A DNA stretch of 64,000 bases from a virus. Where the stretch lies: positions 1-64,000 of the IMG/VR virus record IMGVR_UViG_3300018080_000180, one strand, 5' to 3'. The translations under genes were made by a program, and so were the position numbers. Under the pieces are notes generated by a model. The model was given only the letters and a program-made list of their open reading frames with translations. It was not told the DNA's origin and searched no databases. How positions within the stretch are numbered: the stretch's first letter is position 1; each line of letters starts with the position of its first letter. Below are positions 9,134 to 54,831 of the stretch, in pieces.

Positions 9134-9161
9134 GAAAAAAAGCCCCGGGAATCCCGAGGCT
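9134..9161 (-). terminator. Intrinsic terminator of the late operon
   Basis: GCCTCGGG-ATT-CCCGGGGC (eight pairs, one G-T) is followed by seven T on the minus strand. It closes the transcript that ends with the lysis genes and separates it from promoter C. Confidence 0.9.
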
Positions 9162-9187
9162 CATAACACATTGATTTTTATGGAGTA

Positions 9188-10174: not shown

Positions 10175-10497
10175 TACTGCCCTCCCCTGCTCGCAAAGAA
10201 GATGATAACACCAATGACAATCTGGATCACGGTCAACCCAACACCGAGGGCAACGGCAGAAACCTTTACCCCTGCCTTCATCTCGTTCTGGCCAATGGCG
10301 AGGTGGTTAATGTTGGTTGTCTGGGTGTCTACAGCGGCAAATATCTTGCCTATGCTTTCCTTGACTTCCACAACTCCCCCCTTGAGGTTTTCCAATTCTA
10401 CGCTTTTTGCTGCATCGCATTTTCCAAACCTAAGAGCAAGGTCGTTAACCTTTGAACCGAGATTGTTTAAGTCAGACTCTGTTGCGAATTCGGCCAT
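10174..10497 (-). CDS. XhlA-like holin-associated membrane protein
   Basis: 107 residues from the ATG at 10497 (a GTG one codon earlier is possible). Residues 1-75 are a predicted coiled coil ('LNNLGSKVNDLALRFG'). Residues about 80-103 form one transmembrane helix ('VSAVALGVGLTVIQIVIGVI'), followed by a short basic tail. That layout matches XhlA-type haemolysin/holin partners. It overlaps the giant gene by one base and the endolysin start by one base (TAATG), forming a lysis pair. Confidence 0.6.
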   Translation of the reverse strand: MAEFATESDLNNLGSKVNDLALRFGKCDAAKSVELENLKGGVVEVKESIGKIFAAVDTQTTNINHLAIGQNEMKAGVKVSAVALGVGLTVIQIVIGVIIFFASRGGQ

Positions 10498-36740: not shown

Positions 36741-38852
36741 TTACTCCTCGCAGACTTGTCCGCCGACGTCCTGCACAACGTCGTCGCCTGTTATTGCTGT
36801 GCCGCCATTATCGTTCCAGATATCGCTCCCAGAAAGCTCGGTGCCGCCATTGTCCTGAACAACGTCGTCGCACGCCTCCTCGTTCGTCCAGAACCAGAGG
36901 ATATACCCGTCTTCCTTTGAATAGGTGCTCACACACCTGTAAAACGGATCCATGCGATCGAGGATCTTTTTGATGGCCGAAAGGCTCGTGGATGAATCTA
37001 CCGCATAGTCGGTCGTTCCCCACTTTCTGCCATCATAGGTTCTGAACGAGAATTCAGAGGTAAGGCCAAAGATGAGGTTCGACCGCACCCTCTGGAAGCT
37101 CTCCCAGAATATGATTCCAATGTCGCCATCGTAGACGGTGAGGTCATCGATACGGGCGACGAACTCGCCGATATCCTTGTTGCCGGCGTTGACAACGGTC
37201 TGGAGCGAGGTACCATAAGTTTCATTCGGATGAAAGACCGAGAAGTTACCGGCAAACGCCTCCATGTGGACGACACGCTGGTGCGTCTTGAAATACTGGA
37301 TGTCTCTCCGATAGTAGCCAGCTCTGAATATATTGGTAAGCTGACTGTATCTTGCCTCGTCATCGTTTCGGTTACAAGCAAACATGAATCCGCTGTCAAT
37401 AACTCCACGATCTCCTCCGACCATGGCGTTAAAGAAACGGGCAGGGATGTACAGGTCGCTCTCCGAATTGATTCTGGCGTCGATTGACGGAGAAGAGGAT
37501 CCATCGGTGACAACGTCGGGGAGAACATCAAAGTAGGTACGCTGGAACTCGTAGGTTTTCCCGACAGCGGTATCGGCGACCCCAAGAGTATAGGCGATTG
37601 GCACACCACTGATCGACGTGTCCGCAATGGTAACCCGAGTTGGGCTGACATATCCGGTAATATGAGTATAAGCACCAGTGTGAAAAAAGATCGGTTTACC
37701 AACATCAGTAGCCTCGAATACTTCCAGCGCGGGTCCAGACACCTTGTCAAGGATTCCACCGGATATGTTTGCCATCCCTATGCGTCCGCCACCTATCGCG
37801 ATCGCGTTGTTTCCGGTTGTAATTCCAGTTACCAAGTCTGGACCAACACTCTGAATCGACCCGACAAGGCCATTGATATCCTTGATGGCCGCACCACGAT
37901 CCGGGGCATCAAAGCCTACGCTCCCGAGAATTGGAGAAACGGCGTATGGCGGACCAGCAGGATTAACAGAAACCATCATCACCTTTGCAACCGGAACATC
38001 ATCAACCCACACAACCTGATCGACACGGTTGCCGATCCACTGGCCGGCCGAAAACACCCGACCGGGCTCAGCCCCCTTTGTTCCAATATTCTTGGTCCGA
38101 TAAATAGAAGCAGAGCTGGCAGAGTAGTTTCCAGCAGGAACCTCGATGTTTCCTACCGGAGTGTCGGTAGCGGTTGGGCTGATCTCTGTTGCACGAAACA
38201 CGTCTCCGTAATCTACACTGTCAATCTCTTGACAGGTGCCACTCTCCCACAAAAGCTCGCTGGTTCCATCGGCGCGATTCCCGGTATAATCGGAAAACGG
38301 AAACCTTGACAACGAATAGGTGTACCGATACCCGTAGATCTTTGACGAATCCTCTGGAACTCCAGTGATCAGCGTGGTGGGAACACCCTCGTTGATACGG
38401 TACATATAGTAAAACGATTCGTCAAGAACAATCCGATAGATGGCATCACCGCTGAACAGGTAGGCTTCTTTTTCGTAAACCGCAATGTCGCCGTCGGTGT
38501 CCGATACAGCAGTGCTGCTGAAGTTTTCTACTGGCGTGTAAGTCGTTATCGGCTTGTCAGTTACGTAGACTGTCGAACCGTACTGCCAGATGACAAGGCC
38601 CATATTCTCGTGATCTGCACGGGCATTAAGATCCCCGCTGGGGGTCGCGACGTCCGTGTACAAACGAGATCCCGGGCGTCCTTCGGCCCACGTCCGGTAG
38701 TTGTTTACATTGACACTCTTTTCAGAATATCCAACAGGGATGCCGGACCCGGGAGGAGCCTGCAACATGCCACGCCAGCTCTTCTGAAGTATATCGAAGG
38801 GCTGCTCAGCTCTGGTTATGTTAACCGGACGTTTGAGCTGAATCTTGGACAT
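36741..38852 (-). CDS. Tail nozzle/tubular-B-like protein, 703 aa
   Basis: Long beta-strand-rich protein with repeated blade-like segments ('LVIWQYGSTVYVTDKPITTY', 'DIAVYEKEAYLFSGDAIYRI', 'FAGNFSVFHPNETYG', 'AIKKILDRMDPFYRCVS'), as expected for the beta-propeller nozzle of short-tailed phages (P22 gp10, T7 gp12). It follows the connector gene directly. The C-terminus has two near-repeats (DDVVQDNGG ... DDVVQDVGG). No enzymatic motif is seen. Confidence 0.65.
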   Translation of the reverse strand: MSKIQLKRPVNITRAEQPFDILQKSWRGMLQAPPGSGIPVGYSEKSVNVNNYRTWAEGRPGSRLYTDVATPSGDLNARADHENMGLVIWQYGSTVYVTDKPITTYTPVENFSSTAVSDTDGDIAVYEKEAYLFSGDAIYRIVLDESFYYMYRINEGVPTTLITGVPEDSSKIYGYRYTYSLSRFPFSDYTGNRADGTSELLWESGTCQEIDSVDYGDVFRATEISPTATDTPVGNIEVPAGNYSASSASIYRTKNIGTKGAEPGRVFSAGQWIGNRVDQVVWVDDVPVAKVMMVSVNPAGPPYAVSPILGSVGFDAPDRGAAIKDINGLVGSIQSVGPDLVTGITTGNNAIAIGGGRIGMANISGGILDKVSGPALEVFEATDVGKPIFFHTGAYTHITGYVSPTRVTIADTSISGVPIAYTLGVADTAVGKTYEFQRTYFDVLPDVVTDGSSSPSIDARINSESDLYIPARFFNAMVGGDRGVIDSGFMFACNRNDDEARYSQLTNIFRAGYYRRDIQYFKTHQRVVHMEAFAGNFSVFHPNETYGTSLQTVVNAGNKDIGEFVARIDDLTVYDGDIGIIFWESFQRVRSNLIFGLTSEFSFRTYDGRKWGTTDYAVDSSTSLSAIKKILDRMDPFYRCVSTYSKEDGYILWFWTNEEACDDVVQDNGGTELSGSDIWNDNGGTAITGDDVVQDVGGQVCEE

Positions 38853-38855
38853 CCG

Positions 38856-39542
38856 TTACCTCGAATACCCGAATGAGTCGGCCGGATACACTCTGGCTTC
38901 CTCTTGAATTGGGGTTCTTCCGATCCGCGCCTGCTGGCCTCGGTTCAGCTGGTTGCGTATCTGCCGGCAAACGCGCTCGATGATCACTTCGTCGCTGCCA
39001 TCATCGCCATACTCTTCCGACCGAAGCATGGCGATAACTGCCTTCCGCATGCGCCAGTGGACATGCTGTGGCAACGTGAGCTGAATGTTGATGTCGGTTA
39101 ACGGGGTCGCCTGAATGTAGTATTCAAGGTAATACTTAGTTGTCGTTGAGCCGGGATTGAACGGAAACTCTACAGTGGCAAGCTGCCCATTGTCGGGAAT
39201 TGCATCCCGAGTGTTAACACCAACCTGATAAAATCCCCGGCCATTGAAATAATAGTTCTTACTCCAAGGCCGGGGCAGTGAACGAGAATCGATGCTCGGA
39301 GGTGACTCGGCAAAAACCGCCTTGACCCTTCTGCAGTTCGCGGGACAGTCATACTGGTGTATGTTGTTCTGCGTCACGAGGTAGGGCGGCATCCCGGTAG
39401 AGGGATTAATGTACGTTGTCTGCATGGTATCCTGCTCGTACACGATGGTCTGGATCTCATCGAGAACATTCAGGATCTGCTCCAACGTGTAGTTGCCTAC
39501 CCGCCTGCGGATCATCTCACAGTTATACCGAGTCGATGGCAT
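38856..39542 (-). CDS. Head-tail connector (P22 gp4 / T7 gp11-like)
   Basis: 228 residues. The N-terminus 'MIRRRVGNYTLEQILNVLDE' and the C-terminal helices 'HWRMRKAVIAMLRSEEYG' and 'RVCRQIRNQLNRGQQ' flank a beta-rich insert. This is the layout of the adaptor ring that joins portal and nozzle. Gene order (capsid, unknown, connector, nozzle) supports the call. Confidence 0.6.
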   Translation of the reverse strand: MPSTRYNCEMIRRRVGNYTLEQILNVLDEIQTIVYEQDTMQTTYINPSTGMPPYLVTQNNIHQYDCPANCRRVKAVFAESPPSIDSRSLPRPWSKNYYFNGRGFYQVGVNTRDAIPDNGQLATVEFPFNPGSTTTKYYLEYYIQATPLTDINIQLTLPQHVHWRMRKAVIAMLRSEEYGDDGSDEVIIERVCRQIRNQLNRGQQARIGRTPIQEEARVYPADSFGYSR

Positions 39543-40545: not shown

Positions 40546-40567
40546 GGGAGGGGTGTTACCCCCTCCC
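40546..40567 (-). terminator. GC-rich hairpin behind the capsid gene
   Basis: GGGAGGGG and CCCCTCCC pair perfectly around a six-base loop. Only a weak TTTCATT follows, so it is a leaky terminator or an mRNA-stabilising structure for the abundant capsid message. Confidence 0.55.
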
Positions 40568-40573
40568 AGTCGT

Positions 40574-41830
40574 TCAGTCGACCGGAGGTGCCGCAAACGG
40601 CACAACGATCGAGCCCTGCTGCTGGAGAGTGGTGCTTCCAGCATTCTCGCCGACATCGTATCCGACCTGCTTGATTCCGCAGCTGCAGAATACGCCCGAG
40701 CCGAAGTACTTGTCGTACTGCTGGTATTCCCATTCCCAGTGGAAACCCTCGGGCATCCACTCGCACAGCGCGGCCTGACCGACAAGGAAGCCGACCTGAC
40801 GCGCTGCAGCGGTCTTGTCCCGGGGATCCGAGGAGCCGTCATCCGCATTACCCATCCCCCGGTAGAGGGCGGTAAGCGAAGCGCCACCGGTCGCTCCGGT
40901 GGCGGTTCCGCCAACGGTGAGCGTGGGATAGCGGGGATCTTCGATGAAACGGATGCAGCCCAGCTGGCCGAGGAATCCCGGATACATGAACCGGATTTCC
41001 TGCGAGAAGGCCTGAGCATCACGCCAGATCGGACCAAGGGCGCCAACCTGCGTGGGGTGCTTCAGCCATGTGGCCTGCGGGGAAGGAATGAAGAACAGGT
41101 ATCCCTCGGTGCCGTCCTCGAACATGATCCGACGGATCAGGCTCTCGGTGCTCGCCCACTCTTCAAGACGCTGGAAGAAACGCACGCTGGCTGCAGCGTT
41201 GGTCCCGGTCCCTGCGGTATTAAGCGCGTTGACCAGAGTCTGCGTCCATGTCGCGTAGCTTGCGTTGTAGACGGGCTGCTGAGCATTGCTCAGGCCGGGG
41301 ATGTACCAGTTCGGGGACCACGACGGGTTCAGGAAGTGCGGTGCGGTTGCAAGGTTCTCCGACGCGCCTTCGAGAAGAGCCTGACGCCGCATCTTGCCGA
41401 AGTACTGCTTGAAGTACCGGCCCAGAAGCGGGACACGCTGCTCGAAGAGCTTGTAGGGGAACTTGTCACGGGCATAGATACCATACGCCTGATTGGTTGT
41501 CGCATGGCTGATGTCCGTGTACTGCATCTTGAAGAACTTGGTCGTGATGTCTTCTTCGTTCAGGCGCTGGTCGCCGTTGGCGCCGAGGGTCGGGGCCTCG
41601 TAGAGATCCTTGACCATCGGAACCTTGACCGTGCGGCCTTCGTCTGCCTTGGCGTCGAGCTTCAGGTAGATGGCATTCGGCAGCGCCGGAGCATCTTCGC
41701 CTACGGAGTAGACGTAGTCGTCTGACAGCTTGTCGAACACTTCCTGAGGAAGCGCCTCTTTTTTGAGATCGGTGAGAAAAATCTCGATCTGCAGTTCAGG
41801 ATCGAGAACACCGGGAGTATTAATCGCCAC
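40574..41830 (-). CDS. Major capsid protein (HK97 fold)
   Basis: 418 residues. 'KVPMVKDLYEAPTLGANGDQ', 'FFKMQYTDISHATTNQAYGI', 'PYKLFEQRVPLLGRYFKQYF' and a C-terminal half with 'RFMYPGFLGQLGCIRFIEDP' match the E-loop, spine helix and A-domain order of HK97-type capsid proteins of N4/P22-like phages. The scaffold gene stands directly upstream and the portal before that. It forms the icosahedral shell. Confidence 0.8.
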   Translation of the reverse strand: MAINTPGVLDPELQIEIFLTDLKKEALPQEVFDKLSDDYVYSVGEDAPALPNAIYLKLDAKADEGRTVKVPMVKDLYEAPTLGANGDQRLNEEDITTKFFKMQYTDISHATTNQAYGIYARDKFPYKLFEQRVPLLGRYFKQYFGKMRRQALLEGASENLATAPHFLNPSWSPNWYIPGLSNAQQPVYNASYATWTQTLVNALNTAGTGTNAAASVRFFQRLEEWASTESLIRRIMFEDGTEGYLFFIPSPQATWLKHPTQVGALGPIWRDAQAFSQEIRFMYPGFLGQLGCIRFIEDPRYPTLTVGGTATGATGGASLTALYRGMGNADDGSSDPRDKTAAARQVGFLVGQAALCEWMPEGFHWEWEYQQYDKYFGSGVFCSCGIKQVGYDVGENAGSTTLQQQGSIVVPFAAPPVD

Positions 41831-43268: not shown

Positions 43269-43511
43269 TTAGCTCTGGATCTGCGGCTTTGAGCTGCCGG
43301 CCGCAGGGAAGTTGTTCAGGTTCTCACCCTTGCCTGCGAGGTTCACGCCTGCGCGTGCCCGGCTCGCCGGCCCGGATGTCTGCTTGCCACCCGAGGGTGG
43401 GGACTTGCTGCCAGTTGCCGTGTTGCAAGGCTCGCCACCGGCACCCGCCGAAGCACTCCCCGAACCCGACACAGGCATGTTCTTCTTCTCGAACGTGGAC
43501 TTACCGTTCAT
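43269..43511 (-). CDS. Low-complexity 80-aa protein
   Basis: Ser/Gly/Ala/Pro make up most of the sequence. The stop and start regions overlap neighbours by four bases (ATGA with the portal). No fold can be predicted. Position between portal and scaffold suggests a minor head protein. Confidence 0.5.
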   Translation of the reverse strand: MNGKSTFEKKNMPVSGSGSASAGAGGEPCNTATGSKSPPSGGKQTSGPASRARAGVNLAGKGENLNNFPAAGSSKPQIQS

Positions 43512-45607
43512 ACGGCTGCCTCCTGTGGTTGAGTTTGCATTTTTTCGATAAAGTTACCACCCTGAAGCATATTGTCACCCTCCTGCTGGGGAGTGCCTGC
43601 TCCTATTTCTGCCTGTGATGGACTGCCTGCTGAAAATTGCTGCGGGATCTGCTCCTGACCACTTCCGCCCATGGCGCTCTGCTGGCCCTCTTCCTGAGCT
43701 GCCTGCCCAAGACCAATGAGCTTGTTGCGCAACATGAGCACGTTGATCGACGTCTGGTAGCCAGCCTCCATCTTCAGTAGACCAACAGCCTTGCGTATCT
43801 CTTCTTTCTGCTCATCAGGAATCTCTTGGGTTTCAAGAATGGCGCCGGTCATGATGAGACGCAGCAGCCGGTCCTGAGGGTCGGTAAGCACCTGCAGGGT
43901 CTCGGCATAATTTGACCGCAGCTCTGTTCTCAGGTTGATGCCACTGGTCGAAGGAACCAGCACAACCTTCATCATTGGAAGAATACTGATATCATCGAGA
44001 ACAAAGGTGTTTCCATACGAGTCGACAACCCGCTCGTTGATCACAAAGCCGTTGCTGTTCCCAGCGCCGGCAAACTCACGAGGAATCCCTGCGTAGGTGA
44101 TCTTCGACTGGCGAGCATAGGCCAGAGCCTTCTCGCGCTTGTGGGTCTCCCAGAGCTTGGCGTACCATTTCTGCCCCACGAGACCCATCTCGACCTTGTG
44201 ACGGTACAGGATCCCGGTCTCCTGATTTGACTCTGTACGGGCGTCCATGGCCGCAGGAACGAGCGACAGGCGGTCTGCGAGGTCATACCGCCGGCCGATC
44301 TGATTGACCAGATCAGGACGTGCGCTTGCCCCGGGAAGCTCGATAATTCCACCGTTCGGCAGATCCTTGGTCGAACCCTCGTCGAGCCAGATACGAGCTG
44401 CGGGGTCATTCCACCCCTGCTCGATCTCCAGCTCCTTCTGGGAGTCACCGCCAGTCAGGGCACGATCGAGAGCAAAGGCACCCTTTGCCGACCGGGCCTG
44501 AATGTCATCAACGTACATCTCGCCGCGATTGATCGACAGCTGAATGTCATACAGTCTATCAATGACACCCTGATACTGGGAATGAAACTTGAGCCCGAGC
44601 GGATAGATGTTGCAGTTGTTGGTCTGAACCTTGTCCTTGCCCTTGGCGAGGAAAAGCTCCGAGTCGATGGTGGGAACAATCGCTTCGTAAAACTTGATCA
44701 CCCTCTTACGCTTGGTCCACGTAATGTCAAAATTCGGATCAAGTCCTACCTGCTGAATATACCGCTGCTTCGCCTCGCGGTCCTGCTCCGAACCGTTTTT
44801 GAATCCGGTGTCAGGAAAATTGCAGTGGTTCTTGATGTCGTATTCCCAGTCTTCGACTTCCTCTTTTGTAAAGTGGAAGCCGAGAACGCGATGGCGGTCC
44901 CCCCACTTGTGCTCAGTCTCTCGATAGTTCGGGATGTTGGTCGTATTCTGACCGTAATCAACGCCCTCAACCTCTTCGCGCTCTTTGAGCTGCTTCAGAT
45001 AAGATGAGGTGTGTGGGAATTTCTCGGCTATCTCGTAGGCAAAGAGCATCTCTTCTTCGAAATAGCACTTGATGTCGTTGATGTCAGAGGTTTTCCATGC
45101 AGGGTCAAGGAAGATGCAGAGCGGGTTGGGTGACTCCCACGCGCAGTTACCGAAGTCACTGAAGCGATCGGATATCATCATGCGCTCGTAGCCGACCTGT
45201 ATGAAGCAGTCTCGAAGCGCCAGCTGCTCCGGAGTTTCCCAGCCAAGATTGTACTTGTCAGAATAGTACATATCCTGCAGCTTCAGAGCGAGGCTGTCGA
45301 GCTTGCCTATCATAGGCATGTACTTGATGTCGAACGGATTACTCAGGAAGGATCCGCATAAGGTCTCAACCTTCCATGCAGATATGTTGAAGGTCGGAGG
45401 ACGGCGCCCCTGATTGCGCAGCTTCTCGACAGCATACGATGGCCACTGGCCAAAGTTGATCCCCCAGTACATACGGGAGTTGCGGATAAGGCGCTTCATA
45501 TCCGGCTCCCAGTAATCCTGAAACCGCTCAAACTGGCGCTGAATAAATCCAGCCCTGCGAAGGCGAGTCTCGTCCCGGGGAGATGCTATGCTTTTATACG
45601 CTGGCAT
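43508..45607 (-). CDS. Portal protein (P22-like)
   Basis: 699 residues. 'RDYWEPDMKRL'-type start (FQDYWEPDMKRLIRNSRMYW), 'RRPPTFNISAWKVETLCGSF', 'FGNCAWESPNPLCIFLDPAW', a central basic region with 'KRKRVIKFYEAIVP', and 'IDRLYDIQLSINRGE' fit P22-type portals. The C-terminal 80 residues are Gln/Gly-rich ('SAMGGSGQEQIPQQF') and may form the barrel. It makes the dodecameric DNA channel. Confidence 0.75.
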   Translation of the reverse strand: MPAYKSIASPRDETRLRRAGFIQRQFERFQDYWEPDMKRLIRNSRMYWGINFGQWPSYAVEKLRNQGRRPPTFNISAWKVETLCGSFLSNPFDIKYMPMIGKLDSLALKLQDMYYSDKYNLGWETPEQLALRDCFIQVGYERMMISDRFSDFGNCAWESPNPLCIFLDPAWKTSDINDIKCYFEEEMLFAYEIAEKFPHTSSYLKQLKEREEVEGVDYGQNTTNIPNYRETEHKWGDRHRVLGFHFTKEEVEDWEYDIKNHCNFPDTGFKNGSEQDREAKQRYIQQVGLDPNFDITWTKRKRVIKFYEAIVPTIDSELFLAKGKDKVQTNNCNIYPLGLKFHSQYQGVIDRLYDIQLSINRGEMYVDDIQARSAKGAFALDRALTGGDSQKELEIEQGWNDPAARIWLDEGSTKDLPNGGIIELPGASARPDLVNQIGRRYDLADRLSLVPAAMDARTESNQETGILYRHKVEMGLVGQKWYAKLWETHKREKALAYARQSKITYAGIPREFAGAGNSNGFVINERVVDSYGNTFVLDDISILPMMKVVLVPSTSGINLRTELRSNYAETLQVLTDPQDRLLRLIMTGAILETQEIPDEQKEEIRKAVGLLKMEAGYQTSINVLMLRNKLIGLGQAAQEEGQQSAMGGSGQEQIPQQFSAGSPSQAEIGAGTPQQEGDNMLQGGNFIEKMQTQPQEAAV

Positions 45608-45876
45608 TACAGAGTTGTAGCCTTCTCTTCAACCACGCCCTTGAGCGATGTCAGAAACTTGCTGAGATCGGTGAAGGCGACCTCGGGAGACCCGTTCGGG
45701 CACATCGAGTACATCACCTTCTCTTCGCCATCGATGATTTTCTTGCGGATGTTGACGCTCATGTAGACCGACCCGCTTGACTTCTCGTAGGTGGTCGCCG
45801 GAACTGCTCCGAGCTGGCTGTACACCTTTGACTTCGCTGATCGATCCATCGGCATTACTACATTCCCTGCTGCCAT
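45607..45876 (-). CDS. Unknown 89-aa protein upstream of the portal
   Basis: Shares one base with the portal start. It contains 'SGSVYMSVNIRKKIIDGEEKVMYSMC' and 'AFTDLSKFLTSLKGVV', a likely small alpha/beta domain. No family recognised. Late expression follows from its place behind the 46.3-kb promoter. Confidence 0.55.
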   Translation of the reverse strand: MAAGNVVMPMDRSAKSKVYSQLGAVPATTYEKSSGSVYMSVNIRKKIIDGEEKVMYSMCPNGSPEVAFTDLSKFLTSLKGVVEEKATTL

Positions 45877-45877
45877 T

Positions 45878-46162
45878 TTACACCCCTTGCGATGCGGTTA
45901 ATAGACAATCGAATTCGAACTTCCTGTCAAACTTCACCGGCCCTTCCAGTGTTTCGAAAACCGACTGGCCGCCGGGAAGGAAATAGATCTGAATAAACTT
46001 GGTTATCGTAGGACAGGAGGGACAACGCAGTGTCATCTTTTTCCCGGGGTTGTTCTTCAGGGCCTCAATACAGCAGTCCGGGATCCCTACGAGAAATCGG
46101 CTACAGGTGCCTTGGTCTCCACTACCTCTCAGTTTCTCGTTCTCGCACTCTATTCTTGGCAT
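45878..46162 (-). CDS. Cys-rich 94-aa protein behind the small RNA element
   Basis: The ATG at 46162 lies only four bases past the T tract of a terminator and has no ribosome site, so expression would need read-through, or the true start may be internal. Cysteines at about 6, 20, 30, 31, 47 and 50 (IPDCCIEAL, LRCPSC) suggest a zinc site. The C-terminus is beta-rich. It may belong to head genes by position. Confidence 0.5.
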   Translation of the reverse strand: MPRIECENEKLRGSGDQGTCSRFLVGIPDCCIEALKNNPGKKMTLRCPSCPTITKFIQIYFLPGGQSVFETLEGPVKFDRKFEFDCLLTASQGV

Positions 46163-46165
46163 ACA

Positions 46166-46200
46166 TAAAAAAGCCCCGGCAGGGTTACCCCCGCCGAGAC
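46166..46200 (-). terminator. Strong intrinsic terminator
   Basis: GTCTCGGCGGGG and CCCTGCCGGGGC pair over about 11 positions (some G-T) around a short GTAA-like loop and are followed by six T on the minus strand. It ends the small RNA candidate and any transcript from the LicD-like gene. Confidence 0.9.
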
Positions 46201-46279
46201 TTGGCGCAAAAGAGATGTGGAGCTGAGAACGAAAAATGGCGCATCAGGACGAAACCTTCCGGCTTCCCCTTTTGCGCCT
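46166..46279 (-). ncRNA. Candidate phage small RNA, about 114 nt
   Basis: A promoter at 46286-46314 would start RNA near 46279. The first bases form a perfect 10-bp stem with 46203-46212 (GGCGCAAAAG/CTTTTGCGCC), closing a 56-base internal region, and the terminator follows directly. No reading frame of note lies inside. Promoter, 5'-3' closing stem and terminator make a compact independent RNA unit. Possible roles are a regulatory RNA or, because it sits upstream of the late genes, a put-like antitermination leader. Confidence 0.6.
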
Positions 46280-46285
46280 ATAATC

Positions 46286-46314
46286 AGTATACGTATTTAC
46301 TGGCCAAAAATCAA
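46286..46314 (-). promoter_or_regulatory. Sigma70-like promoter before the small RNA and head genes
   Basis: TTGATT (46309-46314) and TATACT (46286-46291) are 17 bases apart in an AT-rich gap. It lacks the ATTGAC-NN-TCAATTG operator of the early promoters, so it belongs to another class. It drives the hairpin RNA and, by read-through, the 94-aa protein, portal, scaffold and capsid. Confidence 0.7.
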
Positions 46315-46333: not shown

Positions 46334-47101
46334 CTAAAACGTGGTTTTTGACACTTCCTTGAGCTTCCGGTCCCACTTGGCTTTCCCCTCTGCATGGGCC
46401 TGCTCATAGACTGATTTCCGGCCAAAATCGGCCACACTCTTGAGGTGGACCATATCCGGGGAAATGGCCCCACTCCGGTAATATGACTGCATTTTATCGG
46501 GCTCGGGCTTGTTCCCCTTGACGTTGTACCGCTGGAACTTGTAGGCCCAGCCAATGTAGGTAGTGTCGAGCAGCGTGCCGGCCATGATCGGAACATTAAC
46601 CTTGATCGCCCCATCGATCCCGGGCCACTCGACCATATTGAACAGAGACCTGTCGTCAACGATGTGCTCCGGAACCCCCTTGAACCAGTAGCCGCTCGGA
46701 GGGACGCCAACCTGCCCCGGCTGCATCTCCATCTTCTGGTCGTGGCAGTACCACCGCTTGCCGTTTGCAGGATACCAGAACGACAGGCAGATATGGGCAA
46801 ACTTTTTCTGAGCACCGGAATAGTTGAACCCGCAGTACAGCATATTGCTTTTGTCAACATCGTTCACGATGCCCTTGCTGAGCTTCATCCCCCAGCTGTC
46901 AAACGCTCTCACGATACGCTTCCAGTCTTCGCCATACCGCACGCAGATATCGAAATCGCCATCGGGAATGATGCCATCATTTTTGACAATGCCAAACAGG
47001 CCTCCAAAAGATAGCCAGTATTGGACACCGGCAAACCCGAACACCTCGTTAATCATCTTGACGGTGCGCTCCAACATCGGACTCGGCTTTAGACAACCCA
47101 T
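46334..47101 (-). CDS. LicD-like phosphotransferase / nucleotidyltransferase
   Basis: The ATG at 47101 has GAGG before it and lies directly behind the upstream stop. Residues 20-50 ('YWLSFGGLFGIVKNDGIIPD' and GDFDICV) match the LicD motif GG-LG-R-x-G-IPWDDD, with the Asp residues that bind metal. LicD enzymes transfer phosphocholine or similar phospho-groups to surface glycans. It stands with two sulfotransferases and several glycosyltransferases, so a charged-group modification of a surface glycan is likely. Confidence 0.7.
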   Translation of the reverse strand: MGCLKPSPMLERTVKMINEVFGFAGVQYWLSFGGLFGIVKNDGIIPDGDFDICVRYGEDWKRIVRAFDSWGMKLSKGIVNDVDKSNMLYCGFNYSGAQKKFAHICLSFWYPANGKRWYCHDQKMEMQPGQVGVPPSGYWFKGVPEHIVDDRSLFNMVEWPGIDGAIKVNVPIMAGTLLDTTYIGWAYKFQRYNVKGNKPEPDKMQSYYRSGAISPDMVHLKSVADFGRKSVYEQAHAEGKAKWDRKLKEVSKTTF

Positions 47102-47102
47102 G

Positions 47103-47801
47103 TCATACCTCGCATTTCGTTTTCTTGAGAAGGTCGTCAAACTCCTTCGTATTCAAAGGATCGATACCGACGTACTCAAGGACAGTGTTAAAATAAAGTG
47201 GATCGCTTATCATCCTCTCGAACTTCGCCCTGAACACCCCAACATCTTTGTATTTCCGCGAGAGCTCCAGAGCCATTGGATACTCGTGAATGTACCTGAC
47301 CCTCGGGGATGACATAGCAAAGAGGCGCCCGGAAGACGTGGACCAGCTGGCTCCCTTGCTCCACTTTCGGTGGATGCTGAGCACCCGGGCATTCGGGAAG
47401 ATCTTGAGCCACTCGCCAAGGGTGATGCCGTTGCGTGGATCCTTCCAGCCCCACTGTCCCCCGATCGCCTCCCTTGCGGAGAACGTACACGCTGCCGCCG
47501 CTCTCATCTCAGCTGCATTGGAAAACCTTCCAAGGTCTCCACCGCTGCTCTTCATGATGCTGACGTATTTATCCGCAAGCCTTGCCATGTTTCGGTGGGT
47601 AAGCTCGGTTCCCCACATTGCCTTCTGGATGCCAATGTTGATATCCTTCATGGCCTTTGATTCGTGCCACTTCCGGTCGTCCCTGTTGCCGGCGTCGAAT
47701 CCAACGAACAGGCCGCAGAACCGCAACAGCTTCGTCGCATACGAAGTGCCACCACCGTGCATCCCGCAGATAATAATTGGGCTTGCTTTTTTGAAATTCA
47801 T
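47103..47801 (-). CDS. PAPS-dependent sulfotransferase
   Basis: The start at 47801 has GAGGG five bases upstream (an ATG one codon earlier is possible). 'SPIIICGMHGGGTSYATKLL' is the 5'-phosphosulfate loop; 'WGWKDPRNGITLGEWLKIFP' and 'ARVLSIHRKW' form the 3'-phosphate site. About 232 residues is near the family's usual length. It should transfer sulfate from host PAPS to a sugar. Second of two such genes in this cluster. Confidence 0.75.
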   Translation of the reverse strand: MNFKKASPIIICGMHGGGTSYATKLLRFCGLFVGFDAGNRDDRKWHESKAMKDINIGIQKAMWGTELTHRNMARLADKYVSIMKSSGGDLGRFSNAAEMRAAAACTFSAREAIGGQWGWKDPRNGITLGEWLKIFPNARVLSIHRKWSKGASWSTSSGRLFAMSSPRVRYIHEYPMALELSRKYKDVGVFRAKFERMISDPLYFNTVLEYVGIDPLNTKEFDDLLKKTKCEV

Positions 47802-47809
47802 CATCACCC

Positions 47810-48523
47810 TCATTTGTGCCTGATTGTGTATCCGTTACCAGACTTGTCGTAAGCCTTGAACTTGCTGTGCAGCGGCTTCCCGGTGATGATCCGACCATCG
47901 AAAAGCTGCCACGCCCTGTAGTTAAGAACACCCATGTTTCCGTTGATGTGCGGTTTCACAGTACGCAGGTCGCTTACCATAACCTTCAACAGCCTGACCA
48001 TGTCTGGGCGCCTCGCACCTATGATGCCGGCGTTAAGGGCCACACGATCATCGTAGTGCGTGTGGCCGTAGACCCTGCGCTGCTTCTTTCTGATGAATAT
48101 TCCACGATCACCCTCCGATCCAACACACAGATACCCCGGCCTTATGAGCTTGAACGGGTCTCCGTAAAATTCAATGTCGAAAAGATCGCACAGGAAAATC
48201 TCCATCAAGCTCGGATTGCTCGTAATGTACTGAAGGAAGTGAATGTACCGCTGATCATTAAGAGACTGACCAGTCAGGTTCACCCGCTTAAATAATAGCC
48301 CACTGCCAGCACACCTGTTAATGAACTTGCTTGACAACTGGTCGTGGAATATGACAACAGGAAGCCTATGCTTTGCTGCGGTCTCTACAAAGGTAGATAT
48401 CAGCTGGTAGCTGTCTGGCGGAAATGTATGATCAGGCCTGTAATGCTTGCTTACGGGATCTCCGCCTCTGCGCGGCTGCGGATCCCTCGCGCCTGTGAAA
48501 TACGTTGTCAGAATCGATCTCAT
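47810..48523 (-). CDS. Glycosyltransferase, 237 aa
   Basis: AAGGGTG lies before the ATG at 48523. 'RSILTTYFTGARDPQ' is an N-terminal strand, 'MEIFLCDLFDIEFYGDPF' carries the Asp-x-Phe-Asp metal motif, and 'VALNAGIIGARRPDMVRLL' is the acceptor-side segment. The layout is that of DUF616/GT8-like nucleotide-sugar transferases. Its first 92 bases overlap the end of the upstream GT2 gene in another frame. Confidence 0.6.
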   Translation of the reverse strand: MRSILTTYFTGARDPQPRRGGDPVSKHYRPDHTFPPDSYQLISTFVETAAKHRLPVVIFHDQLSSKFINRCAGSGLLFKRVNLTGQSLNDQRYIHFLQYITSNPSLMEIFLCDLFDIEFYGDPFKLIRPGYLCVGSEGDRGIFIRKKQRRVYGHTHYDDRVALNAGIIGARRPDMVRLLKVMVSDLRTVKPHINGNMGVLNYRAWQLFDGRIITGKPLHSKFKAYDKSGNGYTIRHK

Positions 48524-49250
48524 ATATCACCCTTCCGTTGTGCTTAACTCTCGTGTAGCCGCCCTTCCTCATCATCATGTCTATATAGCCAACACGCCTC
48601 GACAGCTGTTTATCGTAAAACTTACTGTTGGTATGACGATGCCCTATGAACGGAGTGTCCATCTGCGCAACACCAATACCAGCCTTCTTTGCCTTTGCAA
48701 AAAAGTCAAGGTGCTCTCCACCGCACTTCAGGTCGGCATCCCATCCACCCATCTTCCTGATCTTGGCAACGTCACCTACCCAGAAGTTGGGAATCATATC
48801 ACAGTACGTAATGCCGCCGCCCTTGCGGTGGGCACCAGAGCGTCGATCGATCTCGGTCCCGTTGATCCGCAGGACTGTCGTATTCCAGTTGGTAGTCCTA
48901 CCCTCTATCCTGCCGCCAAGAATATCGATATCATCGTGTCGCTCCAGAACATCAACCATCTCTCCAAACGGGAACTGCCTGCGAAAGAAAAAATCATCGT
49001 CGAGCAGCATCATGTACTTCGACCTGACCACCTTAAGCATCATATTCCGCTTGGCCGACAGCCCAGAGTCAAACTTCATGTTGATCAGCCTGCCATTAGT
49101 AAGGTGCAGAACAGGCGGAAGTCGACCGTCATTGACCACGATGACAGGAATCGTCTTGGTTATCTCCCGAATAGACGCAACACAGCGAGCCAGAGCGTCG
49201 TTACGCTCGAATGCGGCTATACATATCGTAAGAGCTTCAGAGAGCCGCAT
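48432..49250 (-). CDS. GT2-family glycosyltransferase
   Basis: 272 residues. 'LTICIAAFERNDALARCVAS', 'IPVIVVNDGRLPPV', 'LSAKRNMMLKVVRSKYMMLL' and the metal motif 'LLDDDFFF' are classic GT-A/GT2 features; 'GGWDADLKCGGEHLDFFAKA' is the ED-like catalytic segment. The last 30 codons overlap the next gene, and the tail 'EGSAAAQRRRSRKQALQA' looks like by-product sequence. AAGGAAGG precedes the ATG. Confidence 0.75.
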   Translation of the reverse strand: MRLSEALTICIAAFERNDALARCVASIREITKTIPVIVVNDGRLPPVLHLTNGRLINMKFDSGLSAKRNMMLKVVRSKYMMLLDDDFFFRRQFPFGEMVDVLERHDDIDILGGRIEGRTTNWNTTVLRINGTEIDRRSGAHRKGGGITYCDMIPNFWVGDVAKIRKMGGWDADLKCGGEHLDFFAKAKKAGIGVAQMDTPFIGHRHTNSKFYDKQLSRRVGYIDMMMRKGGYTRVKHNGRVIYEIDSDNVFHRREGSAAAQRRRSRKQALQA

Positions 49251-50154
49251 GGATAGCCTTCCTTATTTCTGACATTCGGGCAATGTTGTCTGCGGCCGAC
49301 CCGGTCTTACGCCCACCCTGTATTGTCCCCAGAGCATTAGCGTACACGGCATCGATGCCTTTTATCTTGTTGATCATGACGTAGTTATTCACACTGTTTG
49401 GCGTCAACCCGCTTGCACAAAACATGACAACCCTCAACGGGCGATTGGCAACCCTGAAAAGCACATTATGCAGCGCCGAACCATGGCAGCCTATGATTAC
49501 ATCATGCTCGTTCACTGCTGCTATCTGCTGCTCTACGGTCTCCAGCTGGGGGTGCGATATCTTCGCACCTATCGAGCACATGAACTCCTCGATCTGATCC
49601 TCACCATGGACCTTCCTCAGCCGGAGCGGCAGCTTACTCCTGCTGAGGTACAGGGGAGCCTTGCGCTTCCGGTACGGCCCCAGCTCCTTGGCTACACTCT
49701 CAAAGAATGCTGCATGGATGGGGTGACAGGACCGACGATTCTCGAACGATGGCAGCGCTATATGGGCCTTCTTGATGGTGGTCCTGCCTGTAGGTGCTTG
49801 AATCTTTGACAGGTGCTTCCGGGTCATTGGACTGATCTTCATGACGCGCAGGACGTTAGTCGAGATCCCCCGGCGTCCGATCACAAGACTCCTCGTTTCC
49901 CCGAAAGCCCATATCCTACTCGATCCCTCAGTGAGAAAATGGCCCCAGTGCGACAGGTCCATAGGAATGAATACTGCATTGCTTACGTGGTTCGACAGAC
50001 CTCTATACAAGCACGCCCGGGGAACCTTAATCTCACCATCTCCGCGAACGAACGTGGATTCCATGATCAACCTGTCATTTGAGCTATAAAGGCGCGGAAT
50101 CCCCTTACCCGGATAATAAACATCCCTTGCAGTGACGAAGCCCGGATTACCCAC
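49237..50154 (-). CDS. GT61 (DUF563)-type glycosyltransferase
   Basis: A GTG at 50154 is chosen, with GGAGG seven bases upstream, giving 305 residues; a TTG at 50232 would add 26 but overlaps the upstream gene by 86 bases. 'LYLSRSKLPLRLRKVHGEDQ' and then 'HPQLETVEQQIAAVNEHDVI' with 'GCHGSALHNVLF' are the conserved GT61 segments. By family it adds xylose or a related sugar. It is part of the carbohydrate block. Confidence 0.7.
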   Translation of the reverse strand: MGNPGFVTARDVYYPGKGIPRLYSSNDRLIMESTFVRGDGEIKVPRACLYRGLSNHVSNAVFIPMDLSHWGHFLTEGSSRIWAFGETRSLVIGRRGISTNVLRVMKISPMTRKHLSKIQAPTGRTTIKKAHIALPSFENRRSCHPIHAAFFESVAKELGPYRKRKAPLYLSRSKLPLRLRKVHGEDQIEEFMCSIGAKISHPQLETVEQQIAAVNEHDVIIGCHGSALHNVLFRVANRPLRVVMFCASGLTPNSVNNYVMINKIKGIDAVYANALGTIQGGRKTGSAADNIARMSEIRKAIHAAL

Positions 50155-50893
50155 GGAGTTGCCTCCGAATGAACCGGGAAACGGTGTCCACCTGATAGGG
50201 GATCTCGTGGTACTCTTCCCCAGCTTCTGCAACCATCCTCTTGAAGACTGGATGCTCCGATACGTGGTTCCATTGCCGATAGAACTCGGGCTTTATCATT
50301 GCTGACAGCCTCTTGAATATCACGGCGTCGCCCTTGTCCTTGCGTTTGCGGATCTCGCCGAGGTGGATCCCGTGGTGGCGCACCTGCCCGGGAGAGTAGT
50401 TCCTGCTGACCTTCAGGCCGGACTCTTCGACCACGCTACGAATTGCCATCTCGTCGTCGTAGTGTCCGTGACCTATCTCGCCGGCAGCCAGCTTGTGCAT
50501 GTACTTGCGCCGTGCATTGAGCGTCTTGGCGTACCACTGGGCATTGACAAAGTTGAGGCCACGCAGGCGCTTGTGGTGATCCCTGCATCGACCCATGATC
50601 GCGTTGCTGTAAGGAAGCCCGGACTGTTTCATCTCCCTGAGGTGGAACGACAGCAGGTCCACCGACTCCTCCATGACCATGATATCGATATCGGTGATCC
50701 ACACATAGTCGTAGTTCCCGGTGACCGTTGCGAGGTGGCGGTACGATGCGGCAGCATACTTCGGCATTCCATCGGGAGGAAGCATTATCTCTATCGTGTA
50801 GTTCGGATATGCTCGCTGAGCACAATACTTGAAAAGCGGAATGTATGCCTTGTACACTCCGCTCGCCGATGTAAGAATAGCTACCTTGGGCAC
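50147..50893 (-). CDS. GT-A glycosyltransferase-like protein
   Basis: Start uncertain: GTG at 50893 is favoured because the N-terminus then reads 'VPKVAILTSASGVYKAYIPL'; a GTG at 50953 would overlap the 54-aa gene. 'GNYDYVWITDIDIMVMEESV' holds the DxD motif, and 'HYDDEMAIRSVVEESGLKV' and 'HHGIHLGE' the acceptor side. About 248 residues. It is in the same block as GT61 and GT2 enzymes. Confidence 0.6.
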   Translation of the reverse strand: MPKVAILTSASGVYKAYIPLFKYCAQRAYPNYTIEIMLPPDGMPKYAAASYRHLATVTGNYDYVWITDIDIMVMEESVDLLSFHLREMKQSGLPYSNAIMGRCRDHHKRLRGLNFVNAQWYAKTLNARRKYMHKLAAGEIGHGHYDDEMAIRSVVEESGLKVSRNYSPGQVRHHGIHLGEIRKRKDKGDAVIFKRLSAMIKPEFYRQWNHVSEHPVFKRMVAEAGEEYHEIPYQVDTVSRFIRRQLRG

Positions 50894-50900
50894 GGATCTT

Positions 50901-51065
50901 TTAAGCGCGAGATTTACGTCTCGCAGGCTTCCGCATTCCGCCCTTCTCGACACCCTTGATCGTCCCCTTGTTCTTTGAAGCGTAGAAGACTCTCTCGCCT
51001 TTCTTCGGGCCGTATTCCTTCTTCATGGACCCCATGATCTTCTTTCCCTTTTTGGTCATCGGCAT
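50901..51065 (-). CDS. Small basic phage protein, 54 aa (common family)
   Basis: GGAG lies seven bases before the ATG. The sequence 'MPMTKKGKKIMGSMKKEYG', 'KGERVFYASKNKGTIKGVE', and a basic tail match a family of 50-60-aa proteins I recall from many phages, function unknown. It is completely overlapped in another frame by the 3' part of the sulfotransferase gene (50914-51065). Its strong match to a known pattern shows that this frame is the real one here. Confidence 0.8.
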   Translation of the reverse strand: MPMTKKGKKIMGSMKKEYGPKKGERVFYASKNKGTIKGVEKGGMRKPARRKSRA

Positions 51066-51681
51066 CGCCATTCTCCTCTGTTAAAAGCTTACGGGCTGCA
51101 GCTACCTTCGAACGGGAAACATTCTTGTAGGCTTCAAGGATATTCCCGGCCAAGGTGCCGGCGTCAGCCCCGTATATAAAATGCATTAAGCTGACAATAA
51201 AGAGCGCAGGCTTTTCAATGATAAAATTGTACTGGGCAATGAAATGATCGTCGGGCTTGTGTTCCTTCAGCCAGTTCGAATACATCATTGTCTTCAGACA
51301 ATAGTTCTGCTTTGCGTTGTCCGGGTTAATAAGGCTGCTGAGGGCCGGAACACCCTTGCCCATAGTCACCCTGCTCTCGACGGCCTCTTCAAGGTTACGG
51401 ACGCACAGGATCGCCTTCCATACCCGCTCTGGCGGGGTTTTCTGCAGAGCCTGAGCAGATACCTTGAGAGCCTTTCCATCGTACTTGCCCTCCGGCAGGC
51501 CGCCCCTGTTCGTGCCATCGGGAAACTCATAGTACCCGAGGGGATTATACTGCTTGAACTCTGAGTTGCCGGCACAGAACTTCGAAGGAGCCACGGGGAA
51601 CCCGAGCAGGTCCAGAGTCTGCATCATCATCGACGTCCCGGTCCTCGGTGCCCCGCATACGATCAATGCGCCCTTAGCCAT
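50914..51681 (-). CDS. Sulfotransferase-like protein with overprinted tail
   Basis: 255 residues. 'KGALIVCGAPRTGTSMMMQT' is the 5'-phosphosulfate P-loop; 'PERVWKAILCVRNLEEAVES' the 3'-phosphate strand and helix. The last 50 residues ('GDADDQKGKEDHGVHEEG ...') are the out-of-frame reading of the 54-aa gene and have no fold of their own. Either the gene has lost its old stop and runs on, or the tail is tolerated. It forms a pair with the sulfotransferase at 47.1-47.8 kb. Confidence 0.7.
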   Translation of the reverse strand: MAKGALIVCGAPRTGTSMMMQTLDLLGFPVAPSKFCAGNSEFKQYNPLGYYEFPDGTNRGGLPEGKYDGKALKVSAQALQKTPPERVWKAILCVRNLEEAVESRVTMGKGVPALSSLINPDNAKQNYCLKTMMYSNWLKEHKPDDHFIAQYNFIIEKPALFIVSLMHFIYGADAGTLAGNILEAYKNVSRSKVAAARKLLTEENGDADDQKGKEDHGVHEEGIRPEERRESLLRFKEQGDDQGCREGRNAEACET

Positions 51682-52167: not shown

Positions 52168-52810
52168 TCGCTCCCTTCAGATCAGAAAACATCTTCTGCA
52201 GAAACCCGGGATCCTTCTGCTCGATGTCATCAAGGTCGAGCTTCAGCCCGTGGTTCTGCCAGAGTATCGCACCCTTCTTCTCGATGAAGCCGCAGCCAAG
52301 CAGCAGCGCACGCCCCTCAGGGGAGCTCTGCTTCCAGCTGGAGACGATATACCGCACGTTGCCGTTGAATAAGGTCTTGGCAACATTCACCAGCTTCTTC
52401 ATGCGGCCCTCTTTGCGATTCTTCGGGCGGGTCCACATATTGTGGATCTCCAGCACACAGTACGGCTTGATCGTCTTCGGCCGAACGAATACGGCGTTAA
52501 GGAACAGGGAGGCAACGATCGTCCCGTTGATGTAGTCGGTAATGTACAGTGGATCGCCCTGATGCGGCTCGATGAAGATGCCATTCTGGCTGGCGAGGGC
52601 CTTCTGGGTACTGGCCTGAATGAGCGGACACTTGTCTGGAAACCCGCCCTTGCTGTTGGCTTTCGTGATGATGTCCTCGCCACCGTCGTCTGCCTTGGGG
52701 TGGCCACACACCAGCTTGTCGCTTGGCATCTCTGTGTAGTGCTCACATTTGCGACACTCGGTAATGAGCTTGTCGCCGTCGACTACCTTTACTTTGCCAT
52801 GTACTCCCAT
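52145..52810 (-). CDS. GNAT-like protein with N-terminal zinc site
   Basis: 221 residues. Residues 18-70 hold four cysteines (CRKCEHY, VCGHP, KCPL), a zinc knuckle. Residues about 85-190 have the strand-helix pattern of GNAT acetyltransferases ('YCVLEIHNMWTRPKNRKEGR' with 'MKKLVNVAKTLF', 'RALLLGCGFIEKKGAILW'). The start has AGGAGG five bases upstream and overlaps the large terminase gene by 22 bases. Substrate unknown. Confidence 0.55.
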   Translation of the reverse strand: MGVHGKVKVVDGDKLITECRKCEHYTEMPSDKLVCGHPKADDGGEDIITKANSKGGFPDKCPLIQASTQKALASQNGIFIEPHQGDPLYITDYINGTIVASLFLNAVFVRPKTIKPYCVLEIHNMWTRPKNRKEGRMKKLVNVAKTLFNGNVRYIVSSWKQSSPEGRALLLGCGFIEKKGAILWQNHGLKLDLDDIEQKDPGFLQKMFSDLKGAIEREVKG

Positions 52811-54831
52811 TCGCTCCTCCTCGGTGCTACGTTCATGCGGCCGCCGCGCATCTTCTCGCGCACCTTGACCTTCCTCTGTGAATATGGTGGCAGCGGGGTC
52901 GGTGAGTCAAATTCACCAGCACCCCGGAGCTCGTTAACAACTATCGCAAGGGCTATACAGTGGGGGTAGCCGTCAGCCGGTATACGCCCATCATACTCCC
53001 AGCCACGATACTGCAGGTCAGTAGCTATGCAGTCGGTATGGACCACGACCCGATTCTCCACAAAGAGCTCACGGGCAAACATGATCGCCGCATTGATGTC
53101 GTACTGCTTGGCCTCGCGGATCCTCATTCTGCGCTTCCGCATCAGCTTTATGGTATTCTCCCCCTTGCTGAACATCTCGCTGTTTCCGAGGATCTTGGTT
53201 GTTTTGCTGAATCCCTTGCCAGCAGCAGCCCTAATCTGCCCTATGATTATCTCAGGCACCGGCCGATCACTTCCAAACTCAGAAACGACAAACAGCTTCC
53301 GGCTGCGCTTCCCCCAGAAGAACCAGTTCCCATGGATCCCGGTGTCCTTCTGCTGAATGACCACACTGTAGAAGTTGAACATATCCGGCTCGACCTCAGT
53401 CCAGTCCAGATCGAAGTCCTTGAACAGCTCACCACTATACTGTGGCCAAACCGACTTCTGGCCAACGAGGAGCTTGTACGCCCCAGACACAGCGTCTATC
53501 TGGTCACGCTTGTTGAGCGGGAATGATCCAGCCTCAGCAAGAAACGCCCTGTTCCATTTACCCCTGACAATGTATACGTGCCCCTGCTCTGCCTTGGCAG
53601 CCCATGTCTTTGCCCTGTCGATCTTACTTCCAGTCGGCCTGTCAGCGTGGAATTCGTACCCATGCAAGAGGGCTCTGTAATGATCCACAGACTCGATGCC
53701 GGCAGACCCGGGCTCCTGCTCTATACCTATCGGGGTATCATGACCGTCCATGGCAGCGTTCTGCTTGACCTTGGCCTCAGTCTTTGCCGGCGTAAGTCTA
53801 AACCGCTCCATGTGGCGTATGTAGAGATCAGGACCATCGAGGCCGCACTTGGCCCCGGCCGTGTAGTCCGGGTCGTCGTCTTCCTTCTCGGGCTCAGTCC
53901 CAGCCTTGTCCCAGTACCTGATCCAGCGAATGCCGCCCGGAACCTCATTCTCCTCGATGATCTTGAACCACAGAGGGTTGAGCATGCCGCCCTTGTAGCT
54001 GATATTCCAGTTACCGTTGAGAAGCCGCTCGCGGTCCACGGCAGCCATGGCCATGAGTGTCGACTTGTAAAAGGGGTCAGCTATCTTACCGAGCGGATTG
54101 TCGTCGATGGTTGATGGAATAAACGTAAGGCTCTTTGGTCCATTCCCTTCGCTGTCCTTCCAACTCTCTTCTACCCATACAATCTCATCATTTATCCGGG
54201 TAAAATACCGAAGAACCCCAGATCGCTCCTGTATGGGCAACCCGGTCTCGTCATCTATCCACCAATCAATAAGATCCCGAACCCACGAGTCTGCGTCGGG
54301 GTTTGTCGTGGCACGCATGTATGGCTTCGCGCCCTTGAACCCTGCCGGCGGACGATTGCGTGACATGAGATAAAAGAACTGACCTTCGGTGAAGTGGGTA
54401 AGCTCATCAAAGCCAATAAACACGTACTGTGCGCCCTGATGATCGAGCTTCGTTTTTTCGTGCTGCATGTGGCTGAACTTTATAAAGCTGTCTGCCGGGA
54501 ACTCCCACTTGAGAAAGTGACCAATAGGGGTGGCGCCGAGCTTCGAGTAGATCTGCGAGGACGTATCCCATAGACCGCCACCAGACGTGATCTGGGGTGA
54601 AGTGCGACGAAAGATAATGCCATTGTAGTTTGGAAGATGAGAATATCTGGCAGCATCAAGCAGGAGCCCGTAGCTCTTCCCGCCATAGGCAGCCCCACCA
54701 TAGATAACTATGTCAGCGGGAGACGCAAGAAACTCTGACTGTGGCCCGGGCTGTGGCGACAGTACGTCAACCCCGCGCTTGGCCGCCTCTACGGCAGCCT
54801 CAGTCATCGATGCATCAAGGGGGGTTGGCAT
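52789..54831 (-). CDS. terL: Terminase large subunit with C-terminal extension
   Basis: 680 residues. Walker A 'YGGAAYGGKSYGLLLDA' (about 43-60), Walker B 'YVFIGFDELTHF' (about 140), then a nuclease domain with 'RYWDKAGTEPEKEDDDPDYT', 'IGIEQEPGSAG' and 'PLNKRDQIDAVSGAYKLL'. A normal terminase would end near residue 470. Here about 200 more residues follow ('GNWFFWGKRSRKLFVVSEFG', 'YRGWEYDGRIPADGYPHCIA') that look like a second, changed RNase H-like nuclease fold. It packages DNA into the prohead. Confidence 0.85.
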   Translation of the reverse strand: MPTPLDASMTEAAVEAAKRGVDVLSPQPGPQSEFLASPADIVIYGGAAYGGKSYGLLLDAARYSHLPNYNGIIFRRTSPQITSGGGLWDTSSQIYSKLGATPIGHFLKWEFPADSFIKFSHMQHEKTKLDHQGAQYVFIGFDELTHFTEGQFFYLMSRNRPPAGFKGAKPYMRATTNPDADSWVRDLIDWWIDDETGLPIQERSGVLRYFTRINDEIVWVEESWKDSEGNGPKSLTFIPSTIDDNPLGKIADPFYKSTLMAMAAVDRERLLNGNWNISYKGGMLNPLWFKIIEENEVPGGIRWIRYWDKAGTEPEKEDDDPDYTAGAKCGLDGPDLYIRHMERFRLTPAKTEAKVKQNAAMDGHDTPIGIEQEPGSAGIESVDHYRALLHGYEFHADRPTGSKIDRAKTWAAKAEQGHVYIVRGKWNRAFLAEAGSFPLNKRDQIDAVSGAYKLLVGQKSVWPQYSGELFKDFDLDWTEVEPDMFNFYSVVIQQKDTGIHGNWFFWGKRSRKLFVVSEFGSDRPVPEIIIGQIRAAAGKGFSKTTKILGNSEMFSKGENTIKLMRKRRMRIREAKQYDINAAIMFARELFVENRVVVHTDCIATDLQYRGWEYDGRIPADGYPHCIALAIVVNELRGAGEFDSPTPLPPYSQRKVKVREKMRGGRMNVAPRRSEWEYMAK

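What the first reader, a model, noticed from the sequence alone, without database searches (positions are those of the whole stretch)
46166..46314. Compact small RNA gene at the head of the late operon
A sigma70-like promoter (17-base spacing), a transcript whose first ten bases pair perfectly with 46203-46212, and a strong terminator lie within about 150 bases, with no reading frame. This is the layout of an independent small RNA, about 114 nt. Since portal, scaffold and capsid genes follow without another visible promoter, the hairpin may also act on RNA polymerase in cis, like the put RNAs of HK022, to permit read-through.
Basis: partly seen in the sequence, partly recalled or inferred. Interest (0 to 1): 0.7.

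Follow-up and report, generated by a model that had tools for sequence, protein, structure and literature searches.

The report
Terminated leader before phage late genes
Just before its capsid-building genes this uncultured phage carries a promoter that is followed about 110 bases later by a strong stop signal, a layout also found in three distant relatives, and it probably works as an on/off gate for late genes, much like a well-known switch in phage lambda, rather than as a free-standing regulatory RNA gene.

Summary
On the minus strand the window has TTGATT-17-TATACT (46314-46286), a start near 46279, a 10-bp perfect 5'-3' stem (46278-46269 with 46203-46212) and the strongest intrinsic terminator on that strand (46202-46171, U6). 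In the window alone the promoter match is not above chance, so I searched for relatives. Three syntenic phage contigs (capsid 56-61% identical) all have, between the same LicD-like gene and the same Cys-rich small gene upstream of the portal, a sigma70-type promoter, a 105-205 nt leader, and a 13-14 bp terminator ending 8-27 nt before the start codon. In two of them it is the best promoter on the strand. Sequence and the 10-bp stem are not conserved, and in the window the stem competes with a local 42-nt hairpin that forms first. In two relatives the promoter lies inside a possible small ORF. The layout therefore matters more than the particular RNA. Best reading: a lambda PR'-tR'-like late promoter whose transcript stops early unless polymerase is made termination-resistant. 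The antiterminator was not found, and no known Q family was detected. A trans-acting sRNA remains possible. A put-like RNA is not supported.

The parts
46286..46314 (-). sigma70-type promoter: TTGATT (46314-46309), 17-base spacer, TATACT (46291-46286); start of transcription expected at 46279/46278
   Evidence: rank 7 of 63,960 on the strand; promoter at the same position in three relatives
46166..46279 (-). predicted terminated leader transcript, about 114 nt
   Evidence: fold -58.6 kcal/mol, z -6.1; promoter-leader-terminator layout in 4 of 4 genomes
46238..46278 (-). local 5' hairpin (GGCGCA/UGCGCC, internal loop, 10 bp, GGAA tetraloop) that forms first during transcription
   Evidence: -24.7 kcal/mol for 42 nt, z about -5; dominates for transcripts of 42-72 nt
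46269..46278 (-).
46203..46212 (-).
   Evidence: alternative to the local hairpin, not seen in relatives
46167..46202 (-). intrinsic terminator: 14-bp hairpin 46202-46171 with GUAA loop; six U, two of them in the stem
   Evidence: terminator at the same place in three relatives
45878..46162 (-). first gene after the terminator: 94-aa Cys-rich (CxN...CxRxL...RCPxC) small protein, conserved in all four genomes
45607..45876 (-). 89-aa conserved small protein
43508..45607 (-). P22-like portal protein
   Evidence: PF16510 3.8e-13, phrog_156
46334..47140 (-). LicD-like gene that borders the element upstream in all four genomes
   Evidence: PF04991; orthologs at 35-46% identity

Best explanation
It is a late-operon leader gate that works like the PR'-tR' region of lambdoid phages. 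A host sigma70 promoter, probably active throughout infection, fires just upstream of the portal-capsid operon. The transcript folds and stops at the terminator after about 114 nt, giving a small abortive RNA comparable to the lambda 6S/late leader RNA. When a phage factor makes RNA polymerase resistant to termination, the same promoter drives the small Cys-rich gene, portal, scaffold, capsid and the rest, including past a second conserved terminator behind the capsid gene. Shown by computation: promoter, terminator, and their conserved order and position in four genomes. Inferred: that the promoter is used, that the terminator blocks early expression, and that a trans-acting antiterminator exists.
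For: Four syntenic genomes carry promoter, then a 105-205 nt leader, then a 13-14 bp terminator (-20.6 to -26.2 kcal/mol), then the ATG of the same gene 8-27 nt later. The promoter is ranked 1st of 39,450 and 1st of 55,403 positions on the strand in two relatives, 7th of 63,960 in the window and 23rd of 58,542 in the third. Of 242 gene starts examined in the four contigs, only the three leaders of the relatives combine promoter score 10 or more with a terminator of -20 kcal/mol or stronger. The window's own leader was dropped from that scan by an overlapping ORF but meets both limits by its separate scores, 14.9 and -26.2. Promoter before terminator is the wrong order for simple insulation of neighbouring operons. 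A second intrinsic hairpin stands behind the capsid gene in 4 of 4 (U-tract weak in some), so the operon contains further stops to be passed. The layout of lambdoid late promoters, with terminator downstream and Q acting on RNA polymerase at PR', is described in PMC6606751 and PMC7171158. AlpA shows that an unrelated protein can do the same with terminators 26-54 nt from the start (PMC7969949).
Against: No Q homolog was found by Pfam profiles: PF03589 and PF06530 in the window record and two relatives, with PF06530 also in the third. PF06323 is uninformative because its control stayed silent. No NusG-like protein was found in three records. No -10-like pause element is evident at +1 to +25 of the window leader. 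Promoter use is not shown by any transcript. Read-through from the upstream terminase/sugar genes could supply some late transcription.
Confidence: 0.55

Rival explanations
1. An independent, stable small RNA that acts in trans on phage or host mRNAs (5' hairpin, U-rich single-stranded linker AUUUUUCGUUCUC, terminator with U tail, as in Hfq-type sRNAs).
For: Compact layout and strong fold; 5' hairpin plus U-rich linker plus terminator; noncoding in the window and in the third relative.
Against: No sequence or structure conservation of the leader body among relatives; two relatives have possible ORFs there; best predicted phage targets are no better than for shuffled linkers, and the pairing with the downstream gene is not significant (16% of shuffles); no Rfam family.
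Confidence: 0.2
2. A leaky terminator/attenuator that merely sets a lower, constant level of late transcription and blocks read-through from the terminase/sugar-modification cassette, with the promoter giving a basal supply; no regulated antitermination.
For: All genes run in one direction, so the terminator also stops transcription arriving from upstream; a further terminator-like hairpin behind the capsid gene is the sort of element that tunes expression.
Against: The terminator is among the strongest of each contig, and a near-consensus promoter placed before it would be wasted.
Confidence: 0.2
3. A put-like cis-acting RNA that makes RNA polymerase resist the terminator without any protein.
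For: A structured hairpin at the very 5' end, as for HK022 putL just downstream of its promoter (PMC9378689); strong local hairpin z about -5.
Against: put RNAs are ~70 nt with two adjacent stem-loops and shared sequence (PMC9378689). Here there is one hairpin plus the terminator itself; relatives lack a significant 5' hairpin, except a moderate one in G002; no DNA similarity to any phage record.
Confidence: 0.05

Closest known systems
Lambda/21/82 late promoter region PR'-tR' with Q antitermination (lambda 6S late leader RNA)
   Same: sigma70 promoter, short terminated leader, intrinsic terminator, then the late genes
   Different: No Q gene detected by two Pfam families (the third uninformative); no sigma-pause -10-like element recognised; upstream neighbour is a LicD-like gene, not Q; the first late genes are portal and capsid rather than lysis genes; leader about 114 nt (lambda's is about 190 nt, from general knowledge)
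AlpA-controlled leaders of Pseudomonas aeruginosa (PMC7969949)
   Same: Promoter with intrinsic terminator a short distance downstream, gated by a processive antiterminator unrelated to lambda Q
   Different: Bacterial programmed-death operon; AlpA itself known; no AlpA homolog was looked for here
HK022 put RNAs (PMC9378689)
   Same: Structured RNA close to the 5' end of a phage transcript upstream of terminators
   Different: No two-stem-loop ~70-nt element, no sequence similarity, hairpin not conserved in relatives, late instead of early operon

Membership tests
Lambdoid PR'-tR' late leader under Q control | sigma70 promoter directly upstream of late structural/lysis genes | tested here: met
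   Promoter at the same position in 4 of 4 genomes, top-ranked on the strand in two; in silico only
Lambdoid PR'-tR' late leader under Q control | Intrinsic terminator in the leader, before the first late gene | tested here: met
   13-14 bp hairpin with U tract in 4 of 4
Lambdoid PR'-tR' late leader under Q control | Phage encodes a Q protein (PF03589, PF06530 or PF06323) | tested here: inconclusive
   No match for PF03589 (three records) or PF06530 (four); PF06323 not informative because its control did not ring; Q families share no sequence with one another, so an unknown analog is possible (PMC7171158)
Lambdoid PR'-tR' late leader under Q control | -10-like sigma-pause element in the initial transcribed region and a Q-binding element between -35 and -10 | tested here: inconclusive
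   No -10-like hexamer seen by eye at +1 to +25 of the window leader; window and third relative have a second -10-like hexamer directly after the -10 (GATTAT / CATAAT); spacers share no obvious repeat
put RNA (HK022) | ~70-nt RNA of two adjacent stem-loops with shared sequence, upstream of the terminators it suppresses | tested here: not met
   One 42-nt hairpin, then linker, then the terminator; not conserved in relatives; no nucleotide match to phage records
Independent trans-acting sRNA | Conserved RNA sequence/structure with compensatory changes | tested here: not met
   Leaders cannot be aligned beyond promoter and terminator; only three relatives found, so no covariation test was possible
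Independent trans-acting sRNA | Stable transcript of ~114 nt that acts on other RNAs | not testable with these tools
   Needs RNA-seq or northern blot of infected cells

The most novel reading that the evidence does not exclude
The leader RNA is a bistable switch: the local 5' hairpin (46278-46238) and the 10-bp 5'-3' stem (46278-46269 with 46212-46203) use the same 5' strand, and which one forms as polymerase approaches the terminator decides, with a factor or unaided, between termination and read-through into the whole late operon. This would be an RNA-based late-gene switch without a Q protein.
Probability: 0.08. Interest if true: 0.75.

Novelty: new member of a known kind. Interest (0 to 1): 0.36.

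Why it matters
It suggests that gating late genes by a terminated leader, known best from lambdoid phages, is also used by an uncultured phage lineage with P22-like portals and no recognisable Q. If so, these genomes should hold an unknown antiterminator, and the four leaders give a defined reporter for finding it.

Tried and rejected
Rfam scan of the window and of the element: only the tRNA-His far away; one sub-threshold antisense-RNA match that is just the terminator. Phage record searches with DNA, portal and capsid: no match. Exact-pattern scan for the stem in viral contigs: none. Covariation test of the 10-bp stem: impossible, because the leaders of the four genomes are not alignable. 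Pairing of the linker with the start of the downstream gene (12 bp with one G-U): not better than shuffles. Trans targets among phage gene starts: not better than shuffled linkers. The 19-codon frame ending in the terminator loop as a leader peptide: not conserved. Simple 'terminator of upstream operon plus promoter of downstream operon': the order is reversed in all four genomes. Pfam scans of most of the small proteins in search of an antiterminator: none.

Full report
What was checked. The window is 64,000 of the 64,367 bases of an uncultured virus record. Nearly all genes run on the minus strand. Around the finding the order, in the direction of transcription, is terminase (52789-54831), a cassette of sugar-modification genes ending with a LicD-like gene (46334-47140), the 171-bp gap of interest, two small genes (94 and 89 aa), a P22-like portal (43508-45607), a scaffold-like gene and the capsid (40574-41830).

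TTGATT and TATACT stand 17 bases apart at 46314-46286, GGCGCAAAAG at 46278-46269 is perfectly complementary to 46203-46212, and a 14-bp hairpin with a run of six U ends the unit at 46167. The 114-nt RNA folds at -58.6 kcal/mol, z -6.1. Most of that z comes from the terminator (z -6.1 alone); the 77-nt head gives about -3. A 10-bp stem joining the two ends of the head appears in 0.005% of shuffles. As a bare consensus count the promoter is no better than chance in this window, so relatives were needed.

It uses the same 5' strand as the 10-bp stem. Folding transcripts of growing length shows the local hairpin from 42 to 72 nt, and the 10-bp stem mostly only after about 78 nt. At full length the model prefers the 10-bp stem by about 4.5 kcal/mol, 30.5 against 26.0 for the head. 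Two alternative folds are therefore possible; which one exists in cells is unknown.

Relatives. Portal and capsid found nothing in 50,697 phage records. Scans of viral and genome contigs with the capsid alone and with alignments gave three syntenic contigs: G001 (L006; capsid 61%), G002 (L010; 56%) and G003 (L013; 59%, a contig binned in a Thermoplasmata MAG). In each, a LicD-like gene ends and an ortholog of the 94-aa Cys-rich gene begins 152-306 bp later (242 bp from the stop of the next small ORF in G002), followed by the portal. Each gap contains a promoter and then a terminator: TTGACA-17-TATAAT and a 14-bp hairpin in G001, TTGACA-17-TATACT and a 13-bp hairpin in G002, TTGTTA-18-TATATT and a 14-bp hairpin with U8 in G003. 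By weight matrix these promoters rank 1st of 39,450, 1st of 55,403 and 23rd of 58,542 positions on their strand, and the window's 7th of 63,960. Among 242 gene starts scanned in the four contigs, only the three leaders of the relatives pass both limits of promoter score 10 and terminator -20 kcal/mol. The window's gene was displaced from that list by an overlapping ORF, but its scores of 14.9 and -26.2 pass.

What is not conserved. Apart from promoter and terminator the leaders cannot be aligned. They have 5' hairpins of very unequal strength: z about -5 in the window, about -3 in G002, near zero in G001 and G003 at 45 nt. In G001 and G002 the promoter lies inside a possible small ORF (63 and 54 aa) that matches no family above chance. 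The conserved object is the layout, not this RNA.

Mechanism. A near-consensus host promoter placed before a strong terminator, both just ahead of the structural genes, is the design of the lambdoid late region: RNA polymerase starts at PR', stops at the leader terminator, and reads on only when Q has modified it (PMC6606751, PMC7171158). I judge the same logic most likely here (0.55). A second intrinsic hairpin behind the capsid gene, at 40567-40546 in the window and at the same place in all three relatives (with a weak U tract in some), means that late transcription must pass further stops. The responsible factor was not found: no match to PF03589 or PF06530, PF06323 uninformative because its control was silent, no NusG-like protein, and no Pfam clue in most of the small proteins. 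That is weak evidence against, since the Q families share no sequence with each other (PMC7171158) and AlpA, an unrelated protein, does the same job (PMC7969949). A trans-acting sRNA (0.2) or a leaky attenuator (0.2) remain open. A put-type RNA is unlikely, since put RNAs are ~70 nt with two adjacent stem-loops and shared sequence (PMC9378689), which fails here.

Limits. Only four genomes were found. Start-site positions are inferred from the promoter hexamers.

Noticed in passing
window 40546-40567 (-): Terminator-like 8-bp hairpin with U tract just behind the capsid gene; a hairpin lies at the same place in all three relatives.
   Followed up: partly
window 46334-51681 (-): Cassette of sugar-modification genes (LicD-like, sulfotransferase-like, glycosyltransferase-like ORFs) inserted between terminase and portal; similar cassettes lie there in all three relatives, with different gene content.
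   Followed up: partly
window 10497-23294 (-): Giant 4265-aa protein with PBECR5 nuclease-like, GGDEF-like and DUF7178 matches.
   Followed up: no
window 9140-9162, 9093-9122, 7307-7336, 4467-4495 (-): Intrinsic terminator followed by three near-consensus sigma70 promoters before the helicase, exonuclease and Erf-like genes; likely early promoters.
   Followed up: no
window 20238-20266 (-): A perfect TTGACA-17-TATAAT inside the giant gene, the best promoter match on the strand.
   Followed up: no
G002 (L019-L021), reverse-oriented 38318-39271 (-): The exonuclease gene of this relative also has a strong promoter (TTGACA-17-TATATT) and a terminator (-18.6) in a ~243-nt leader, so terminated leaders may be used more than once per genome.
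   Followed up: no
L013 (G003:C66): A phage contig with sigma70-like promoters is binned in a MAG called Thermoplasmata archaeon; the bin assignment may be wrong.
   Followed up: no
L006 5452-5643; L010 2771-2935: Possible small ORFs (63 and 54 aa) that contain the promoter in two relatives; they share a G-x-I-x-L-H-like stretch, no family match.
   Followed up: partly
window 45878-46162 (-): Cys-rich 94-aa protein with its start codon 8 nt behind the terminator stem and no Shine-Dalgarno sequence except inside the hairpin; the hairpin may also limit its translation.
   Followed up: partly
G001 10295-12373, G002 47935-50013 (re-oriented coordinates): Terminases of two relatives match the window's only over the C-terminal third, suggesting exchange of the N-terminal part.
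   Followed up: no
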